Shown piece after piece: positions 45,228-52,434 of a DNA stretch of 64,000 nt. The DNA comes from Dokdonia sp. Dokd-P16 (lineage in GTDB: Bacteria > Bacteroidota > Bacteroidia > Flavobacteriales > Flavobacteriaceae). The number at the start of each line of letters is the position of its first letter. The stretch's first letter is position 1. Under the pieces are notes generated by a model, which did not search any database, had not been told where the DNA came from, and saw nothing but the letters and a program-made list of their open reading frames with translations. The stretch covers positions 3,161,001 to 3,225,000 of the forward strand of contig NZ_CP029151.1 of the NCBI RefSeq assembly GCF_003095655.1, written 5' to 3'. Made by a program: the position numbers and the translations under genes.

Positions 45228-47834
45228 ATGAATCTAAATAATTATACCATAAAATCGCAGGAAGCCATCCAGAGAGCGCAGCAAATTGCGCAAGAAATGG
45301 GTCACCAGCAAATAGAAAACGAGCATATTTTTAAAGCTATTTTTGAAATAGATGAGCATGTTACTCCATTCTTACTTCAAAAGCTAGATGTAAATATTCC
45401 GTTATTCCAGCAAGTTTTAGATAGCACGTTACAAAGCTACCCAAAAGTATCAGGAGGTGATATTCTACTAGGTCGTGAGGCAAATAAAGCACTCACGGAG
45501 GCTAGTATTATTGCTAAAAAAATGAACGATGAGTATGTCTCTATAGAGCATTTGATACTCGCTATTTTTGGAACAAAAAGTAAAGTAGCTCAAATCTTAA
45601 AAGATCAAGGAGTGACAGAAAAGCATTTACGTGCCGCGATTGACGAAGTACGTAAAGGAAATCGTGTGACTTCTCAAAGCGCCGAAGAAACTTATAATTC
45701 TTTAAATAAATACGCAAAAAACTTAAATGAGCTTGCTCGTAATGGAAAGCTAGATCCTGTAATAGGACGTGATGAAGAGATACGACGCATATTACAAATC
45801 TTAACGCGTCGTACCAAGAACAATCCTATTCTCGTAGGAGAGCCAGGTACTGGTAAAACCGCCATCGCCGAAGGTCTTGCGCATAGAATTGTAGATGGCG
45901 ACATTCCAGAAAACTTGCAGAATAAGCAAATATTTGCCCTTGATATGGGAGCGCTTATTGCTGGTGCAAAGTTTAAAGGAGAATTCGAAGAACGTCTTAA
46001 AGCGGTTATAAAAGAAGTAACAGAAAGTGATGGCGATATCGTACTCTTTATAGATGAGATACACACCCTTGTAGGTGCTGGAGGTGGTCAAGGCGCAATG
46101 GATGCGGCAAACATTCTTAAGCCTGCGCTTGCTCGTGGAGAATTACGTGCCATAGGTGCAACCACGCTTGATGAGTATCAAAAATACTTTGAAGCAGATA
46201 AGGCCCTAGAGCGTAGATTCCAGAAGGTAACCGTAGATGAGCCAGATACAGAGAGTGCGATTTCTATCTTACGTGGTATCAAAGACAAGTATGAGACACA
46301 CCACAAGGTGCGTATTAAGGATGATGCAATTATTGCTGCTGTAAAGTTATCACAGCGCTATATTACGAGCAGATTTTTACCAGACAAGGCGATTGACTTG
46401 ATGGATGAAGCTGCCGCGAAAATGCGAATGGAAATCAACTCTAAGCCAGAAGAGCTAGATGTGTTAGACCGTCGTGTGATGCAGCTAGAGATTGAGATCG
46501 AGGCTATAAAGCGTGAGAAAGATGAAGATAAGCTCAAAAGCCTGCGTGCAGATCTAGCAAACCTTAAGGAGGAGCGCAACGATCTTAACGCACAGTGGCA
46601 ATCTGAAAAGGATATTGTAGAGAGTGTACAAAATGCTAAGCAAGACATAGAAAACTACAAGCTAGAAGCCGAAAAAGCAGAGCGAGAAGGAAACTATGGG
46701 CTAGTAGCAGAGCTACGTTATGGTAAAATAAAAGAAGCTCAAGAGCATCTTGAGGAGCTACAAAAGGATCTTGCAAGTCAAGCAGATACTTCGCTTATTA
46801 AGGAAGAAGTAACTAGCGAAGACATTGCAGAGGTGGTTGCAAAATGGACAGGAATCCCTGTACAAAAAATGCTACAGGGAGAACGTGAGAAGTTACTCAA
46901 GTTAGAAGACGAGTTGCACAAACGTGTAGTGGGACAACGTGAGGCTATTGTTGCCGTAAGTGATGCCGTACGACGCAGCCGTGCAGGTTTACAAGATCAA
47001 AAGAAGCCAATTGGTTCGTTCTTATTTTTAGGAACAACCGGTGTAGGTAAAACAGAACTTGCAAAAGCACTGGCAGAGTACCTCTTTGATGATGAGAATG
47101 CAATGACGCGCATTGATATGAGTGAGTATCAAGAGCGTCACAGTGTGAGCCGTCTGGTGGGAGCGCCTCCAGGATACGTAGGTTATGATGAAGGTGGCCA
47201 GCTTACGGAGGCCGTGCGACGTCGTCCTTACTCTGTGGTGTTGCTCGATGAGATTGAGAAGGCACACCCAGATACGTTTAACGTGTTATTACAGGTGCTT
47301 GATGAAGGTAGACTTACAGATAATAAAGGCCGCACTGCCGACTTTAGAAATGCCATTATCATTATGACTTCAAATATGGGTAGTCATATTATAAAAGAGC
47401 GTTTTGAGGCGATTCCAGATGTAGATGCTGCGATGGAATCTGCAAAGATTGATGTTCTTGGCTTATTAAAACAAAACATACGTCCAGAGTTCTTAAATAG
47501 AATAGATGACATTGTAATGTTTAGTCCGCTTACGCGAAAAGACATTCGGGATATTGTGAAGTTGCAGTTTAAAGGGATTCAAAAAATGCTTGCACAGCAA
47601 AATATTACGCTAGACGCCACAAAACAGGCAATAGACTTTATATCCGAAGCAGGTTTCCAGCCAGAATATGGTGCAAGACCTGTGAAGAGAGCTATGCAAC
47701 GCGAAGTGCTTAATCAGTTATCAAAAGAAATTTTGAGCGGTAAAGTAGCATCAGACAGCGTGATACTCGTAGACTCCTTTGACGACAAACTCGTCTTTAG
47801 AAACGAAGGAGAACGCACAGGAGAAGAAGAATAA
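45228..47834 (+). CDS. clpB: ATP-dependent chaperone ClpB
   Basis: 868 residues, full length. An N domain (Clp_N repeats), AAA1 with GEPGTGKTAIAEGLA and DEIHTLVGAGG, the coiled-coil middle domain that marks ClpB (about 410-520), AAA2 with GTTGVGKTELAKALAE and DEIEKAHPD, and the C-terminal D2-small domain. It disaggregates proteins together with DnaK. No CIRCE-like or sigma-32 site is visible upstream; regulation is unknown. Confidence 0.98.
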   Translation: MNLNNYTIKSQEAIQRAQQIAQEMGHQQIENEHIFKAIFEIDEHVTPFLLQKLDVNIPLFQQVLDSTLQSYPKVSGGDILLGREANKALTEASIIAKKMNDEYVSIEHLILAIFGTKSKVAQILKDQGVTEKHLRAAIDEVRKGNRVTSQSAEETYNSLNKYAKNLNELARNGKLDPVIGRDEEIRRILQILTRRTKNNPILVGEPGTGKTAIAEGLAHRIVDGDIPENLQNKQIFALDMGALIAGAKFKGEFEERLKAVIKEVTESDGDIVLFIDEIHTLVGAGGGQGAMDAANILKPALARGELRAIGATTLDEYQKYFEADKALERRFQKVTVDEPDTESAISILRGIKDKYETHHKVRIKDDAIIAAVKLSQRYITSRFLPDKAIDLMDEAAAKMRMEINSKPEELDVLDRRVMQLEIEIEAIKREKDEDKLKSLRADLANLKEERNDLNAQWQSEKDIVESVQNAKQDIENYKLEAEKAEREGNYGLVAELRYGKIKEAQEHLEELQKDLASQADTSLIKEEVTSEDIAEVVAKWTGIPVQKMLQGEREKLLKLEDELHKRVVGQREAIVAVSDAVRRSRAGLQDQKKPIGSFLFLGTTGVGKTELAKALAEYLFDDENAMTRIDMSEYQERHSVSRLVGAPPGYVGYDEGGQLTEAVRRRPYSVVLLDEIEKAHPDTFNVLLQVLDEGRLTDNKGRTADFRNAIIIMTSNMGSHIIKERFEAIPDVDAAMESAKIDVLGLLKQNIRPEFLNRIDDIVMFSPLTRKDIRDIVKLQFKGIQKMLAQQNITLDATKQAIDFISEAGFQPEYGARPVKRAMQREVLNQLSKEILSGKVASDSVILVDSFDDKLVFRNEGERTGEEE

Positions 47835-47852
47835 AGATTGATTGACGATCAT

Positions 47853-47890
47853 GTAAAGTGGATATCTAGAGATAGGTATCCACTTTTTTT
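47853..47890 (+). terminator. Rho-independent terminator of clpB
   Basis: 10-bp stem AAAGTGGATA (47855-47864) and TATCCACTTT (47877-47886) followed by T-run. Confidence 0.85.
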
Positions 47891-47944
47891 ATGGCCTGAC
47901 TAGTAAGTTTTTACGGCTCTTTATGCGGTGACGAATACACTAAT

Positions 47945-48025
47945 AAGTGTATATTTAGGAAATCAATTAAAATAGGCACTACTGCACCGCACTGGGCTTA
48001 TGTAGAGGGCTGTTGACCACAATAA
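47945..48025 (+). repeat. Spacer 5' module, copy A
   Basis: GTGTATATTTAG, AATCAATTAAAATAGGCA, then ACTGCACCGCACTGGG, TGTAG and CTGTTG. It aligns closely with copy B at 48809 (AATAGGCA.TAC.GCACCG.ACT.G.CTT.TGTAG....CTGTTG) and ends shortly before the TTG start at 48044. Confidence 0.75.
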
Positions 48026-48043
48026 ACTAAAACAATCAAAACA

Positions 48044-48658
48044 TTGGATAAATATTTATATACATTATTAACATTCACTCTTTCAATAATATCCGGAGTA
48101 ATAGGCTACTATCTAAAGCAACTAATTGACAAGAAAAAATCTAAAAATCTAAAAATCTTAAATGTCGATTTGAGCATAGCTCAGGCCTGTAGTTTATCAC
48201 ACAATCCAAAAGGTTATTTACCTTCACGCCTATCAGTAAAATTGGAAAATCTTTCACAAACTGATATTACTGTTAAAAGTATTTCATTGAAACATCGTAA
48301 GCATTTGGATATTTTTCCAGCTCAAATGATAACGGATAATGAGAACACAATAAAACAATATGAAATCAAGACTTTTTCGTACAAAATGGAAAAAGACATT
48401 ATAAATCAAAACAGTAACAATGAAATAATAAACGTAAGGAAAAAGTTGTTAGAATTACCAACTGAATTTATTGGTACTTTATATTGGTATGTATTTAACT
48501 TGAAAGAAACTACCAAATCACGCAAAGAATTTGATAAAAAAATTAAAGGTTTAATGGTAAAAATATATACAAATATTGGCGAATATGAGAGAAAACTAAA
48601 ACGAAATGAACTTAATCATTTAAAACAAGCTTTAGATAAATTTTACCCAAACCAATAG
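48044..48658 (+). CDS. Membrane-anchored hypothetical protein, 204 aa
   Basis: TTG start (MDKYLYTLLTFT..), one N-terminal TM anchor (LLTFTLSIISGVIGYYL), then a soluble domain with KLENLSQTDITVKSISLKH (a small beta-sandwich look) and a basic, helical C-terminus. AT-rich compared with neighbours. No family recognised. First gene of the module-flanked island; no promoter of the usual kind is visible. Confidence 0.6.
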   Translation: MDKYLYTLLTFTLSIISGVIGYYLKQLIDKKKSKNLKILNVDLSIAQACSLSHNPKGYLPSRLSVKLENLSQTDITVKSISLKHRKHLDIFPAQMITDNENTIKQYEIKTFSYKMEKDIINQNSNNEIINVRKKLLELPTEFIGTLYWYVFNLKETTKSRKEFDKKIKGLMVKIYTNIGEYERKLKRNELNHLKQALDKFYPNQ

Positions 48659-48671
48659 CAATAATTACTGT

Positions 48672-48749
48672 GGGCAACAAAGAACTGAGTCAAAAAATAA
48701 GCCTAATTCATCTGCGCTCTTTACAAGTTTTTTAGCTGATTTTAACCTA
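48672..48749 (+). repeat. Spacer 3' module, copy B
   Basis: GGGCAACAAAGAACTGAGTC, then AAAAATAAGCC and TACAAGTTTTTTAGCTGATT. It is shared with copies C (49379) and E (50906). It begins 14 bp after the stop of the 48044 gene. Confidence 0.75.
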
Positions 48750-48781
48750 TAATTTTCATTAAAGGTTTTTCCTGACTTTAA

Positions 48782-48795
48782 GCTTTCGCGAAAGC
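48782..48795. repeat. TTTCGCGAAA palindrome, copy 18 (inside the spacer)
   Basis: GCTTTCGCGAAAGC at the junction of the 3' and 5' modules in spacer B; a degenerate copy occupies the same place in spacer C. Confidence 0.9.
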
Positions 48796-48808
48796 ATTAT
48801 CTTTCTCA

Positions 48809-48897
48809 AATACTTGTATATTTAAATCATAAATTAAAAAACAATCAAATAGGCAGTACCGCACCGAACTCGCTTTGTGTAGTTACCTGTTGCCATC
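48809..48897 (+). repeat. Spacer 5' module, copy B
   Basis: AATACTTGTATATTTAAAT, then AAATAGGCAGTACCGCACCG, CTTTGTGTAGTTACCTGTTGCC, ending 18 bp before the TTG start at 48915. The TGTTGCC (48888-48894) is the inverse of GGCAACA at 48673. Confidence 0.8.
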
Positions 48898-48914
48898 AAT
48901 TTAAACCAAACGCA

Positions 48915-49400
48915 TTGAACAAAGAAAAATTATCACAATTTGAAAGAATAAAAATATTTCTTAATGAATATTATTTTGGTTACGGAATTTTCTTCTCAAT
49001 CTTAAGAATTGTAGCTGGACCATTGATATTGATAATGGGTCTAAACTTGTATTATAATGGCAATACAAAACCTGGAATTGGATACTCTGGATTTATGATT
49101 TTTTTTGGAATTTACTATATGCTAAAACCTTTGATTATTATTCTAACCCAAAAGTCTTGGTTTCAGAATTTTGACCTTGACTACACAATTAATCCTGACA
49201 AAATTATTATTGAATCAGACAAAAGTAAATCTGAATTAGATTACTCTCACTTAAAAACAGTTCTGAAAAGGAAAACATATTACGCTCTCAAAACGAAATC
49301 AAAACAAGGAATTTATTTACCAATAAAACTTTTGGAATCGAACGAAATCGATATTCTGAATAAACTGAAAAACAATACAGGCAACAAAGAACTAAGTTAA
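48915..49400 (+). CDS. Membrane protein, 161 aa, reading into the 3' module
   Basis: TTG start. Two TM segments (YGIFFSILRIVAGPLILIMGL and PGIGYSGFMIFFGIYYML) and a basic PH-like C-terminal half (NFDLDYTINPDKIIIES, HLKTVLKRKTYYALKTK). The last residues GNKELS are encoded by the 3' module itself (GGC AAC AAA GAA CTA AGT TAA), so the reading frame runs through the repeat and stops there. Family unknown. Confidence 0.65.
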   Translation: MNKEKLSQFERIKIFLNEYYFGYGIFFSILRIVAGPLILIMGLNLYYNGNTKPGIGYSGFMIFFGIYYMLKPLIIILTQKSWFQNFDLDYTINPDKIIIESDKSKSELDYSHLKTVLKRKTYYALKTKSKQGIYLPIKLLESNEIDILNKLKNNTGNKELS

Positions 49401-49455
49401 AAAACAAGCCTACTTCGGCTGGGCTCAGTACAAGCTTTTAAGCTAATTTTGATCC
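49379..49455 (+). repeat. Spacer 3' module, copy C
   Basis: GGCAACAAAGAACTAAGTTA, then AAACAAGCC, GGCTGGGCTCAGTACAAGC and TTTTAAGCTAATTTTGATCC; the best-preserved copy. Its first 21 bases are coding for the 48915 gene. Confidence 0.8.
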
Positions 49456-49489
49456 ATAATTCACATCGCAGAGCCCTCTCCAATTTACC

Positions 49490-49502
49490 CTTCCGCGAAA
49501 GC
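49490..49502. repeat. Degenerate TTTCGCGAAA palindrome (inside the spacer)
   Basis: CTTCCGCGAAAGC, one change in the core, at the same relative place as copy 18. Confidence 0.65.
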
Positions 49503-49515
49503 ATCATCCTTCTTA

Positions 49516-49621
49516 AATACTTGTATATAAACGATCAATTAAAAAATAATAGAACAGGAATATTAGAAGTTCCGATAGCTATCGGGAGATGCGCTTGCTT
49601 TTATAGGGAACTGTTGGGATG
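49516..49621 (+). repeat. Spacer 5' module, copy C (partly diverged)
   Basis: AATACTTGTATATAAACGAT and CAATTAAAAAATAA match copy B; the middle has diverged and holds a short inverted repeat CCGATAGCTATCGG, then GGGAACTGTTGGGATG. It lies upstream of the toxin-antitoxin pair. Confidence 0.65.
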
Positions 49622-49684
49622 CATAATCACTCAGCAAACTGATAAAAACTCTTTTTGTATATTTGATTAGTTAACTCAATTAAT

Positions 49685-49903
49685 ATGGATATTCAATCAA
49701 CAAAAATTGAATTGGTAAAAACTATCTTAGCGATAGAAAATAGTGATTTTATTCAAAAAGTAGCTGACTTTGTAAATGCTGAAAAAGTTGATTTTTGGAA
49801 TGAATTAACTACTTCTGAAAAAGATGAAATTAAAGAAGGGATCAATCAGCTTGATCACGGAAAGCGAGTTTCTTATGATTCATTCTTGAAAAAGATTTCT
49901 TAA
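49685..49903 (+). CDS. Antitoxin of a type II toxin-antitoxin pair
   Basis: 72 residues; N-terminal helices (KIELVKTILAIENSDFIQKVADFV) and a C-terminal ELTTSEKDEIKEGINQLDHGKRVSYDSF, which matches the general pattern of RelB-like/Phd-like antitoxins in Bacteroidota (short linker ending in SYDSF). It presumably binds the adjoining toxin and autoregulates. The stop overlaps the toxin start by one base. Confidence 0.78.
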   Translation: MDIQSTKIELVKTILAIENSDFIQKVADFVNAEKVDFWNELTTSEKDEIKEGINQLDHGKRVSYDSFLKKIS

Positions 49904-50205
49904 TGGAAGTATTCTTATCTGAATTAGCAGAAAGAAAACTCCTGAAACTCTCCGAATATCTCTTAGAAACTTGGAATCTAAAAACGCGTGATAAGTTTAT
50001 TGAAAAACTAACTGTAAAAATTAAACAGATTTCTTATCAACTAGAAAGCTGCCCTCAATCTTCAGATCTCAAAGCCCTGTATAAGTGTGTTGTAACAAAA
50101 CAAACTACCTTTTATTATAGAATTTCGACAAATCTAAACGAAATTGAAATAATTACAATTTTTGACACAAGACAAAATCCTGACAAACTAAGAAAGGATA
50201 TTTAA
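49903..50205 (+). CDS. RelE/ParE-family toxin
   Basis: 100 residues of the RelE/ParE fold: MEVFLSELAERKLLKLSEYL, a long helix KTRDKFIEKLTVKIKQISYQ, CPQSSDLKALYKCVVTKQTTFYYRIS and the closing IITIFDTRQNPDKL. Length and C-terminal DTRQNP are typical. ParE-type gyrase poison or RelE-type mRNA cleavage cannot be told apart from sequence. Located inside the module-flanked island. Confidence 0.82.
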   Translation: MEVFLSELAERKLLKLSEYLLETWNLKTRDKFIEKLTVKIKQISYQLESCPQSSDLKALYKCVVTKQTTFYYRISTNLNEIEIITIFDTRQNPDKLRKDI

Positions 50206-50366
50206 AATACAACTCAGCATACATAAAACTGCTACGGCTGATTGCCAAAAAGCACAGGTTTCAATTATAGAAAGTTCAATTGTCATTGCAGTTAGACATG
50301 ACAATACATGAAGCGTCCCGATTACACTGAAAATTGAAAACTGTCTATGCGATGCGTGAAAACGCA

Positions 50367-50480
50367 AATATCTGTATATTTAAATAATCAATTAAAGAAC
50401 TACGCGATAGGCTTACTTGCACAACCAATAGTTGTTGGAGTTAAATTGTCTTTATTTAGGGGCCTGTTGGTAATAAATTG
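50367..50480 (+). repeat. Spacer 5' module, copy D (diverged)
   Basis: AAATATCTGTATATTTAAAT, AATCAATTAAAGAACTACGC, GATAGGCTTACTTGCAC, then CCTGTTGGTAATAAATTG up to the ATG at 50483. The CTGTTG end and the CTGTATATTTAAA.AATCAATTAAA block match copies A-C. Confidence 0.65.
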
Positions 50481-50482
50481 AA

Positions 50483-50884
50483 ATGATGATTAAAATCTGG
50501 AATTACATAAAGGAAAATAAAACTGTTAGTATTTTGAACCTAATCGTATTTCTGATTCTAATTGTTCCCAATTCTTACTCTTTTGGACATAACTACGAAA
50601 CGGAAGAATTACATTGGATTCCAAATTTTGTGTTTAAAGAAATTGACCTGATTGTATTTTATTTACCAATTCTGATTTTAACAATCGGATTTCAACTTTC
50701 TAAAAAAACTATTTGGAGAAATACATTTTTGATTTTGTTTATTGTTTTCTCAATTCTTTACTTTATTGGAGCAGTATTTTCGTTATCATTTCCAATTCAG
50801 GATTTTTCACCTGGAATTGGGAATTTATTGATTCTGACTTTATTTCCTCTAATTATAATTATTTTCAAAAGCAAACAATATTAA
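50483..50884 (+). CDS. Integral membrane protein, 133 aa
   Basis: Four predicted TM segments (ILNLIVFLILIVPNSYSF, LIVFYLPILILTIGFQL, TFLILFIVFSILYFIGAVF, GNLLILTLFPLIIIIF). Very AT-rich. No recognised family. It starts two bases after the end of module D and stops just before 3' module E. Confidence 0.6.
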   Translation: MMIKIWNYIKENKTVSILNLIVFLILIVPNSYSFGHNYETEELHWIPNFVFKEIDLIVFYLPILILTIGFQLSKKTIWRNTFLILFIVFSILYFIGAVFSLSFPIQDFSPGIGNLLILTLFPLIIIIFKSKQY

Positions 50885-50905
50885 CGCAATAAAAAGAAAA
50901 AACTA

Positions 50906-50940
50906 TTGGCAATAAAGAACTCAGTTAGAAACAAAATCAA
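50906..50940 (+). repeat. Spacer 3' module, copy E
   Basis: TTGGCAATAAAGAACTCAG, then TTAGAAACAAAA. It matches the start of copies B and C; the rest is not present, so the array ends here, before the TlpA-like gene. Confidence 0.7.
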
Positions 50941-51033
50941 AATTTATAGTGTCCTAAACTATCGTAACAAAATCCCCCTAACCCCCACTAAGGCACGATA
51001 AATGTATATAAGAAAACGTTTGTTACCATTAAC

Positions 51034-51041
51034 TATCTTTG
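51034..51041 (+). promoter_or_regulatory. -7 element TATCTTTG of the TlpA-like gene
   Basis: Exact TAnnTTTG 17 bp before the ATG at 51059. Confidence 0.5.
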
Positions 51042-51058
51042 TAACTCATACATATACC

Positions 51059-51787
51059 ATGAAAAACATTCCATTCCTATTTATACTATTTGTTGCGTTC
51101 TCTTTAAGCGCTCAACAAAACTACTATACCTTTCAAGGTGACACCTATGACGAGGAAAGCTTTCAAGCCAAACTAAAATCTATAGAAGAGGTTTACGGTG
51201 CGCAAGGAAGCTGGAAATACACAAAAGCCAACTTTAAAGTTCGCCATTCTCGTGTGCGACAAGACTCCATTATACAAGAGGTCGAGGTGATGCTGTCGCA
51301 ATCTAATAGCGCGCCTCTAGATATTAATGTAGGAGTAAATGGATTAATTAATAAACCTCTACCCGACTTTCAGCTGCAAGATCTTACAAATGGGCTTAAG
51401 TCTAAGGAGAGTTATAATGATAAAATCACACTCATTAACTTGTGGTTTACGAGCTGCCCTCCTTGTATCGCAGAGATACCTTATCTCAATGATCTCAAGA
51501 AACAGTATGAAGATCGCGTAAATTTTGTCGCTATCACTTTTGAGCCAAAAAGTAAAATCGACGATTTTTTAACTAAGAAACCGTTTGACTTTGAGCACCT
51601 AGTAGATGGTGCCAGCTATTTAAAGCAAGATTTGAAAACCAACACATATCCTAAGCTCGTATTTATGGATCGCAATGGTACCGTACGCTTTGTAGAAAAT
51701 GCGGTAATGGCTCAAGGCAGAGGTCCAGCAGCAGAGGTTACAGAAATCCTTAAGGAACATCTTGACTATCTTTTAGCAGATAACTAA
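51059..51787 (+). CDS. TlpA-family disulfide reductase
   Basis: 242 residues. Signal peptide to FSLSAQ; a thioredoxin fold in the second half with NLWFTSCPPCIAEIPYLNDL (CPPC near residue 131) and FVAITFEPKSKIDDF, VDGASYLKQDLKTNTYPKLVF. The N-terminal domain (DTYDEESFQAKLKSIEE) is of the AhpC/TlpA-accessory type. Periplasmic thiol:disulfide exchange is expected. ATG 51059 is preferred to the earlier in-frame start at 51002 because it starts the signal peptide. One-base overlap with the next gene (TAATG). Confidence 0.85.
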   Translation: MKNIPFLFILFVAFSLSAQQNYYTFQGDTYDEESFQAKLKSIEEVYGAQGSWKYTKANFKVRHSRVRQDSIIQEVEVMLSQSNSAPLDINVGVNGLINKPLPDFQLQDLTNGLKSKESYNDKITLINLWFTSCPPCIAEIPYLNDLKKQYEDRVNFVAITFEPKSKIDDFLTKKPFDFEHLVDGASYLKQDLKTNTYPKLVFMDRNGTVRFVENAVMAQGRGPAAEVTEILKEHLDYLLADN

Positions 51788-52434
51788 TGGAAAACATCGT
51801 AGAGCCAACTCCAGATTACTCCCCACTTGAGGAAAAACTCAATGTATGGACACATGGATTTGGTTTTGTAGCAAGTTTGATTGCTTTGGGTTTTTTAAGC
51901 TTTCGCGAAAGCGTATCAATCACAGCAACCGTTAGTCTCATTATTTTTGGAGTTAGCATGTCTGTGCTGTATTTTGCCTCTACGGCTTACCACAGTGCTG
52001 TAAAACCAATACGTAGAGCTAGATTAAAGATTTTTGACCACGCGGCAATCTACGTACTCATTGCAGGAACTTACACACCTTTTACACTCGTAACTTTAGA
52101 AGGAAGTACTGGATGGTGGATTTTTGGGATTGCATGGTCTATCGCTTTATTCGGTATTATTTTAAAACTTTTTTTTACAGGACGATTTGATATTCTTTCT
52201 ACCATTCTTTATGTAGCAATGGGTTGGCTTATCGTTTTTGCATACAAACCATTACTAGCAAATCTTGATCCAGCTGGAGTGCAATGGCTTTTTACTGGAG
52301 GTATTTTATATACGATAGGTGCTGTACTTTACAGCATTTCTCGCATTCCTTATAACCATGCTATTTTTCATGTATTTGTCTTGGGAGGCACAGCCTCTCA
52401 CTTTATTGCAGTTTACAACTACGTAGGAGTTTAA
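51787..52434 (+). CDS. Hemolysin III family (PAQR-like) membrane protein
   Basis: 215 residues, seven TM segments. Family motifs: EEKLNVWTHGFGFVASLIALGFL (start), FASTAYHSA with the first conserved His of the PAQR metal site, IFDHAAIYVLIAGTYTPF with Asp and His, and the last IFHVFVLGGTASHF. Role in Bacteroidota unknown; PAQR members are hydrolases in some organisms. It overlaps the TlpA-like gene by one base, so the two are linked. A palindromic repeat lies in frame as LSFRESVS near residue 40. Confidence 0.9.
   Translation: MENIVEPTPDYSPLEEKLNVWTHGFGFVASLIALGFLSFRESVSITATVSLIIFGVSMSVLYFASTAYHSAVKPIRRARLKIFDHAAIYVLIAGTYTPFTLVTLEGSTGWWIFGIAWSIALFGIILKLFFTGRFDILSTILYVAMGWLIVFAYKPLLANLDPAGVQWLFTGGILYTIGAVLYSISRIPYNHAIFHVFVLGGTASHFIAVYNYVGV
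51899..51913. repeat. TTTCGCGAAA palindrome, copy 20 (in CDS)
   Basis: GCTTTCGCGAAAGCG in the hemolysin III gene, read as S-F-R-E-S, a third reading frame. Confidence 0.9.

What the first reader, a model, noticed from the sequence alone, without database searches (positions are those of the whole stretch)
47945..50940. Cassette-like array: lone small genes separated by related modules with inverted-repeat ends
Between clpB and the TlpA-like gene each of three orphan genes and one toxin-antitoxin pair is preceded by a 5' module (blocks TTGTATATTTAAAT, AATCAATTAAA, AATAGGCA..GCACCG, CTGTTG). Two orphans and the last gene are followed by a 3' module (GGCAACAAAGAACT..., TACAAGC..TTTTAAGCT). In spacer B GGCAACA (48673) and TGTTGCC (48888) are inverted and 222 bp apart; with the next bases they align GGCAACAnnnAACT in both orientations. 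This is the outline of attC-flanked gene cassettes, but the sequences do not match the standard attC ends and no integrase is in view. It could be a distinct flavobacterial cassette system.
Basis: partly seen in the sequence, partly recalled or inferred. Interest (0 to 1): 0.8.

Follow-up and report, generated by a model that had tools for sequence, protein, structure and literature searches.

The report
Hidden gene-cassette system of Bacteroidota
This stretch is a small, partly worn row of movable gene cassettes belonging to a large integron-like gene-shuffling system in Bacteroidota, whose recombinase lacks the domain that defines known integron integrases and which integron surveys would therefore tend to overlook.

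Summary
Window 47945-50940 holds four gene cassettes between clpB and tlpA in a Dokdonia genome; only the first keeps clearly complementary ends, so this array is partly decayed.

Related modules recur in two large arrays of the genome. One starts 113 nt from a divergent 274-aa tyrosine recombinase (C1:89970-90791), next to an attI-like site.

Cassette starts (GTTN6[A/C]A[T/G]NN) are reverse complements of the same cassette's end, with a fixed C.A mismatch. The mobile unit runs from G|TT to G|TT: near-identical cassettes at two places in another genus stop matching there. Sites between cassettes are about 119 nt, covary, and fold better on the bottom strand in 114 of 116.

This is integron logic, but the integrase lacks the IntI-specific domain (57 aa where IntI has 99) and falls outside canonical IntI. 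Only 8 of 116 starts fit GTTRRRY. Site matches occur in 134 of 149 Flavobacteriaceae genomes (one per genus), the integrase in 82 of 247 Bacteroidota genomes. Nine open-access literature searches found no description.

Recombination is inferred from sequence, not tested; structure prediction could not be run.

The parts
45228..47834 (+). clpB, left flank of the insertion site
47945..48012 (+). 5' module (leader) before cassette 1, ending CTG|TT
   Evidence: repeat families D1, D4
48012..48025 (+). Cassette 1 start arm GTTGACCACAATAA
   Evidence: 12 of 14 complementary to the cassette's own end; one of the two mismatches is the usual C.A position
48044..48658 (+). Cassette 1 gene, 204 aa, no Pfam family
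48665..48678 (+). Cassette 1 end arm TTACTGTGGGCAAC
48679..48889 (+). Composite recombination site: 3' module AAAGAACTGAGT.. plus leader TTGTATATTTAAAT..CTG
   Evidence: related copies in the genome
48889..48902 (+). Cassette 2 start arm GTTGCCATCAATTT
48915..49400 (+). Cassette 2 gene, YcxB-like protein
   Evidence: Pfam YcxB 25.1 bits against cut-off 23.3
49372..49385 (+). Cassette 2 end arm, worn (9 of 14), overlapping the gene's 3' end
49386..49613 (+). 3' module plus leader before the toxin-antitoxin cassette
   Evidence: part of window block 49382-50496 shared with G008 at 87%
49613..49626 (+). Cassette 3 start arm GTTGGGATGCATAA
   Evidence: Start only; no convincing own end (7 of 14)
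49685..49903 (+). Antitoxin-like small ORF, 72 aa
   Evidence: position before ParE; no Pfam hit
49903..50205 (+). ParE-family toxin
   Evidence: Pfam ParE_toxin 28.2 bits against cut-off 23
50214..50466 (+). Degenerate leader (contains CTACGGCTGATTGCC, compare TGGACGGCTGATTGCC), ending CCTG|TT
   Evidence: One search compared by eye with array leaders
50466..50479 (+). Cassette 4 start arm GTTGGTAATAAATT
   Evidence: 9 of 14 to its own end
50483..50884 (+). Cassette 4 gene, 133 aa, no Pfam family
50900..50913 (+). Cassette 4 end arm AAACTATTGGCAAT, worn, followed by AAAGAACTCAGTT
51002..51787 (+). tlpA-like gene, right flank of the insertion site
   Evidence: Pfam AhpC-TSA/Redoxin

Best explanation
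The window array is a satellite row of gene cassettes of an integron-like system. A tyrosine recombinase encoded at C1:89970-90791 (related to IntI but without the IntI-specific domain) would cut cassettes at G|TT and join the circles at an attI-like site beside its own gene or at other cassette sites. Each cassette would move as TT-gene-NNACTN6AAC-(about 119-nt site)-G. In the circle the two ends make one site whose single strand folds into a hairpin: a 14-nt outer helix, a short unpaired spacer, an inner helix and a variable loop. Fixed C.A mismatches on the top strand are G.T wobbles on the bottom strand, so the bottom strand folds better; this could set the strand used and hence cassette orientation. 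Shown from sequence: modules, own-end complementarity, breakpoints, integrase and attI layout, covariation, computed folding bias, missing domain. Inferred: enzyme activity, single-strand substrate, strand choice, leader function, and that this integrase put the cassettes between clpB and tlpA.
For: Own-end pairing: 74 paired-end matches in 27 sequences (23 with any), each on one strand, against 2 in a cross-locus control; one of those 2 is the window set against itself because no longer locus existed, so the fair figure is 73 against 1 in 26. Fixed C.A position in 153 of 295 pairs from a scan that did not impose it, next commonest combination 19. Mobility: in G043 four cassettes each occur at two places with bodies 99.3, 99.8, 100 and 100% identical and different neighbours, breaking at G|TT (details in the full report); 76 of 127 within-genome repeats end at the last T of a shared GTT or one base beyond. 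Layout: 34 of 40 integrase loci hold cassettes, the first within 400 nt of the integrase in 21 of 40; own genome 113 nt with 13/13 paired positions. Structure: 10 of 12 predicted inner pairs show double changes; bottom strand more stable in 114 of 116, in 103 of 116 without outer arms, against 97 of 200 random windows. Domain missing: 57 aa against 99 (medians); VchIntIA residues 181-243 unmatched. Spread. Variable site content.
Against: In the window only cassette 1 has clear arms (12/14); cassettes 2 and 4 give 9/14 and cassette 3 7/14, where ends of other cassettes average 7.3. The window sites are not the 119-nt type, and nothing shows that the integrase at 90 kb made this array. Ends of the A1/A2 cassettes were chosen by best match (24 of 33 starts kept), which inflates that comparison. 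The C.A position was part of the search pattern for the 116-site set and helps its bottom strand. 76 of 196 qualifying cassette ends had no GTT at 115-123 nt. The looser scan gave minority opposite-strand hits in 3 of 20 loci. The G043 pairs were picked by equal arms and length. Left ends of the 127 repeats lie 0-3 nt from a start signature in only 32; 92 have none within 8 nt. One full-length integrase locus, L167, has no cassette. No same-species strains; no biochemistry.
Confidence: 0.88

Rival explanations
1. The window array is a remnant (CALIN) of an ordinary, known integron, and the flavobacterial integrase is just a divergent IntI.
For: The best NCBIfam match of the integrase is TIGR02249, integron integrase (184 bits). 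The SPLD-like C-terminal tail and the G|TT crossover are shared. The Bacteroidota group in the tree has only 90/73 support.
Against: Below the TIGR02249 cut-off (184 against 265; 0 of 30 genomes over it). The IntI-specific segment is absent in 38 of 38 Bacteroidota rows and present in 22 of 22 canonical rows. Canonical IntI form a separate group (100/100). GTTRRRY in 8 of 116 starts. No extended-arm cassettes in 24 canonical IntI loci, though these were not checked to hold arrays.
Confidence: 0.06
2. Each gene is a small transposon or MITE-like unit with terminal inverted repeats that inserts next to others; the integrase is a bystander.
For: Complementary ends flank each gene; the Dokdonia leader itself consists of two units with inverted ends.
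Against: Cassettes abut at one shared site of about 119 nt, on one strand, often starting at a fixed spot beside the integrase. The terminal sequence differs from cassette to cassette but pairs within each cassette, unlike a transposase-read repeat. Target duplications were not searched for systematically.
Confidence: 0.04
3. The repeats are only regulatory modules (promoter leaders and terminators) that accumulated around orphan genes; nothing moves now.
For: The Dokdonia leader carries a promoter-like AT-rich motif (recalled, not tested) and may drive each gene; the window array looks worn.
Against: G|TT breakpoints of duplicated cassettes, gene-content differences at clpB-tlpA including a nearly empty site, and integrase-headed arrays in many genera.
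Confidence: 0.03

Closest known systems
Integrons (IntI / attI / attC; e.g. the Vibrio cholerae superintegron with VCR sites)
   Same: Tyrosine recombinase beside attI at the array head; arrays of mostly small unknown genes in one direction; crossover G|TT; foldable site of two box pairs with a loop, about 120 nt; bottom-strand bias (here computed); own-cassette end pairing.
   Different: Integrase lacks the alpha-I2/beta-4,5 segment (with PMC3053210 passages); outer box is 14 nt with a fixed C.A (bottom G.T) position instead of the 7-nt GTTRRRY; 31 of 51 aligned sites show no extra base in the inner box; separate integrase group.
CALIN (clusters of attC sites lacking an integron integrase)
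   Same: The window array has cassettes but no integrase next to it.
   Different: Sites are of the Bacteroidota type, and the genome does encode a matching kind of integrase elsewhere.
XerA / XerC / XerD recombinases
   Same: Similar core without the IntI insert; by profile, PDB matches to archaeal XerC-like 4a8e and XerA 5hxy score a little above VchIntIA 2a3v.
   Different: Apart from the Xer group in the tree, SPLD-like tail, association with cassette arrays.
ORF-less promoter cassettes of oral integrons (PMC6557892; title and start of abstract seen in the listing only)
   Same: A gene-free unit with a possible promoter role, like the Dokdonia leader.
   Different: The leader lies between site and next cassette and starts G|TG rather than G|TT; promoter activity not tested.

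Membership tests
Integron | Tyrosine recombinase with full catalytic set | tested here: met
   R132, K157, H221, R224, H247, Y256 invariant in 16 of 16 aligned integrases (role of these positions recalled)
Integron | IntI-specific additional domain | tested here: not met
   Segment between KDR and HxLRH: 57-62 aa in 38 Bacteroidota rows against 98-101 in 22 canonical IntI and 62-68 in 15 Xer-group rows; VchIntIA 181-243 unmatched. Called defining in PMC9668308 (passages)
Integron | Score above the curated integron-integrase cut-off (TIGR02249) | tested here: not met
   184.4 against 265 bits
Integron | Integrase beside attI and the first cassette | tested here: met
   21 of 40 loci within 400 nt; own genome 113 nt
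Integron | attC core R''=RYYYAAC / R'=GTTRRRY | tested here: not met
   GTT shared by construction of the scan; GTTRRRY in 8 of 116
Integron | Foldable site with outer and inner box pairs, bottom strand favoured | tested here: met
   (computed folding only)
Integron | Extrahelical bases in the folded bottom strand | tested here: inconclusive
   An extra base in the inner box in 20 of 51 aligned sites (gap count at one alignment column)
Integron | Cassettes move with crossover at G|TT | tested here: met
   By sequence breakpoints only:
Integron | Recombination by the integrase shown in cells or in vitro | not testable with these tools
   Needs the bench
CALIN (for the window array) | At least two sites within 4 kb, no integrase nearby | tested here: inconclusive
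   Cassette 1 clear, cassettes 2 and 4 partial; the one integrase of this clade found in the genome is at C1:90 kb

The most novel reading that the evidence does not exclude
Bacteroidota carry their own major class of integron, sister to classical integrons, in which the integrase never had (or lost) the domain that reads extrahelical bases, and strand choice is instead written into the site as fixed C.A / G.T asymmetries. The domain held necessary for cassette recombination would then not be necessary in general.
Probability: 0.6. Interest if true: 0.95.

Novelty: new variant of a known kind. Interest (0 to 1): 0.9.

Why it matters
[quoted passage not shown] That tool calls an integrase only if it also matches the IntI-specific domain profile (PMC9668308, passages), so it would be expected to pass over these integrases; I did not run it. 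If right, many Bacteroidota have an uncounted reservoir of mobile genes: site matches in 134 of 149 Flavobacteriaceae genomes, one per genus, and the integrase in 82 of 247 Bacteroidota genomes. It also makes a mechanistic question testable: how a recombinase without alpha-I2 and beta-4,5 picks one folded strand.

Tried and rejected
Rfam at E <= 1 on window 47000-52000 gave nothing. A within-Dokdonia search for shared cassettes with different flanks gave almost nothing (one 70% match between species and one cassette three times in G006), as did the first cross-genus comparison (apart from overlapping copies of the same loci, one 69% match); the case for mobility came from duplicated cassettes inside other genomes. 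The opposite-strand count is not an independent control, since it is the same pairs seen from the other strand. In one search the window's cross-control was the window itself. In one search the attempt to measure outer-arm extension in canonical cassettes found no qualifying pair and says nothing. The idea that the pairing lies within one spacer was rejected: end arms against the next cassette's start score like other cassettes (2.82 against 2.84 of 7; own 6.2). The leader was considered as a transposon or an ORF-less cassette; not settled. Structure prediction was not obtained.

Rows dropped: one search used 24 of 33 starts of A1/A2. Searches used 75 of the 124 sequences, chosen by me by origin, score and tail. 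Alignment A1 (and model R1) used 51 of the 56 references; the five left out were from L073, L088, L090, L091 and L177, three of them (L088, L090, L091) from genomes titled other than Flavobacteriaceae. One search kept only repeats of 250 nt or more at 97% or more; many of its 127 pairs are not independent, and some are copies of the leader. The count against one search was made by me from their lists.
Full report
What is in the window. Between clpB and a tlpA-like gene (47.9-50.95 kb) lie four units: an orphan gene, a YcxB-like gene, an antitoxin/ParE pair and another orphan. The genome is one 3.62 Mb contig. The genus is taken as Dokdonia: a contig titled uncultured Dokdonia encodes an 87%-identical integrase (L084), and three same-genus genomes (G016, G006, G012) carry close orthologs.

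The modules are not local. TTGTATATTTAAAT with one mismatch hits 31 places, 19 of them in two large arrays; the backward pattern hits 14. Reading the arrays shows A1 (C1 about 90.9-115 kb, + strand) and A2 (C1 about 2582-2619 kb, - strand), with 15 and 18 leader-type starts and most genes on one strand. A1 is headed by a divergent 274-aa tyrosine recombinase at C1:89970-90791. The first cassette begins 113 nt from it, after GCGTATATATATAC|G, with 13/13 paired end positions besides the fixed mismatch.

End logic. For 24 of 33 A1/A2 starts an end was found. Own start and end match at 11.8 of 14 positions against 7.3 for other cassettes; in the seven inner variable positions 6.2 against 2.84, and 2.82 for the end against the next listed cassette's start. 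The observed sum, 149, exceeds all 100,000 permutations (maximum 105). Because these ends were picked by best match, the fairer test is the fixed-pattern scan: 74 matches in 27 sequences, each on one strand, against 2 when starts and ends came from different loci. One of those 2 is the window tested against itself, so 73 against 1 in 26. Some of the 74 share a start. A scan without any constraint at positions 1-4 still gave C.A at position 4 in 153 of 295 pairs, the next combination 19. This is how integron cassettes behave: the two ends of a circle form one site.

Site. Forty integrase loci were fetched, 38 from 38 other genera of the family and two from other Dokdonia species. Over all loci held at that point, 120 cassette ends had GTT 115-123 nt on and 76 did not; 116 of the 120 are unique, from 37 loci. 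Inner box: own complement 5.67 of 6 against 4.21 for others, 103 of 116 with 5 or more. On 51 array-form sites RNAalifold predicts 12 inner pairs, 10 with double compensating changes. With DNA parameters the circular site folds better as bottom strand in 114 of 116 (means -28.0 and -23.8); with a foreign start arm the bottom-strand mean is -21.7. Without the outer arms the bottom strand still wins in 103 of 116; random windows from the same loci give 97 of 200; 20 of 24 A1/A2 arm pairs, found without imposing the mismatch, also favour the bottom strand. The likely reason: C.A on top is G.T on the bottom.

Mobility. In genome G043 four cassettes, picked by equal arms and length, occur at two places each with bodies 99.3, 99.8, 100 and 100% identical. 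Left side: in three pairs identity stops at the G or one base before it; in the fourth it runs on 17 nt, with single mismatches, into a related site end. Right side: in three pairs it stops just after the next GTT; in the remaining one it breaks up 100 nt into the site. In that last pair one copy follows attI and the other a site. Across samples of 16 genomes, 127 repeats (>= 250 nt, >= 97%) end at the last T of a shared GTT or one base beyond in 76 cases, a little further in 13, 7 nt before one in 10, and without a shared GTT nearby in 28; left ends lie 0-3 nt from a start signature in 32, and 92 have none within 8 nt, several of these visibly running into the preceding site. No random control was run for these offsets. 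At clpB-tlpA spacing and content differ: 3.2 kb here, 4.6 kb in G016, 6.9 kb in G003, 3.1 kb in G008 and 2.5 kb in G006. The toxin-antitoxin block is shared with G008 (87%), G006 (89%) and G012 (92%); in G009 the aligned parts of the two genes lie about 160 nt apart. The scan found no paired-end cassette at this site in the five relatives with a filled site (L214-L218) nor in G009, so decay is general here.

Integrase. It matches TIGR02249 best (184 bits) but under the cut-off (265), skipping model positions 181-240. In an alignment of 75 sequences the segment before HxLRH is 57-62 aa in 38 Bacteroidota rows, 98-101 in 22 canonical IntI rows and 62-68 in 15 Xer-group rows. Against VchIntIA (2a3v) residues 181-243 have no partner. 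PMC3053210 (passages) places extrahelical-base contacts of alpha-I2 and beta-4,5 there (K209, Y210, W219, P232, H240, H241). The tree gives three groups: canonical IntI 100/100, Xer 100/100, Bacteroidota 90/73, so the last is likely but not certain to be one clade.

Spread. Integrase (E <= 1e-35) in 99 of 149 Flavobacteriaceae genomes, one per genus, and in 82 of 247 Bacteroidota genomes, 56 of 122 genera. The covariance model R1, built from sites of some of these same genomes, finds sites in 134 of the same 149 (at most 21 candidates scored per genome): 97 of 99 genomes with the integrase and 37 of 50 without (my cross-count). Of 40 integrase loci 34 hold cassettes; of the six without, five are stretches cut short at a contig end and one (L167) is full length. 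First cassettes within 400 nt of the integrase (21 of 40; 16 co-oriented, 5 divergent) mostly follow AT-rich, attI-like sequence ending in G|TT. No extended-arm cassette was found in 24 canonical IntI loci (309 kb; not checked to hold arrays) against 164 pairs in the 40 loci (713 kb).

How it probably works. Shown by sequence: units, boundaries, pairing, layout, missing domain. Inferred: the integrase binds the folded bottom strand as a pair of monomers on outer and inner helices, cuts after G, and inserts at attI; orientation follows from using one strand. In known integrons the crossover is also between the first two bases of GTTRRRY (PMC8876359, passages) and the bottom strand is bound (PMC3053210, passages). 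How strand choice works without the extrahelical-base readers is the open point; I propose the C.A/G.T asymmetry, untested.

The window array. Arms score 12, 9, 7 and 9 of 14, so only cassette 1 is clear. I read it as a worn satellite array. That the integrase at 90 kb made it is inferred.

Literature. Nine searches of an open-access library without preprints listed no report, by title or start of abstract, of a Bacteroidota cassette system with an integrase lacking the domain; most subscription journals are not in it. Reviews do list Bacteroidota among phyla with integrons (PMC8618304, passages). Seven papers were seen as passages (PMC9024848, PMC2426708, PMC8618304, PMC9668308, PMC7370490, PMC3053210, PMC8876359); others in listings only.

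Noticed in passing
C1 arrays A1 and A2, e.g. L009 13633-14065; also L164: Dokdonia leader of about 430-460 nt between site and next cassette, made of two units with inverted ends (TGGACGGCTGATTG..CAATCAGCCGTCCA and CAGGCCACTAC..GTAGTGGCCTG); looks like an ORF-less, promoter-like element that invaded G|TT junctions.
   Followed up: partly
Window 48780, 49487, 51897 and many genome places: Palindrome CTTTCGCGAAAGC and near copies recur often in this genome, also inside the gene at 51787-52434.
   Followed up: no
G154 and other genomes: Some genomes carry several integrases of this clade (four matches in G154), and several integrases lie within 1 kb of a contig start, as if arrays break assemblies.
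   Followed up: no
G231 array (L277) against 199 genomes of its genus: 72 of 199 genomes match at E <= 1e-50; stretches of about 130 nt recur at 87-98% identity in many species, and some long stretches at 67-84%.
   Followed up: no
L094-L163: The canonical IntI relatives found come from Verrucomicrobiota, Chloroflexota, Acidobacteriota and others; the 22 aligned ones carry the usual long insert.
   Followed up: partly
Integrase loci of several genera: Many Bacteroidota integrases are open frames of 350-470 aa with an extra N-terminal part, while the Dokdonia protein is 274 aa.
   Followed up: no
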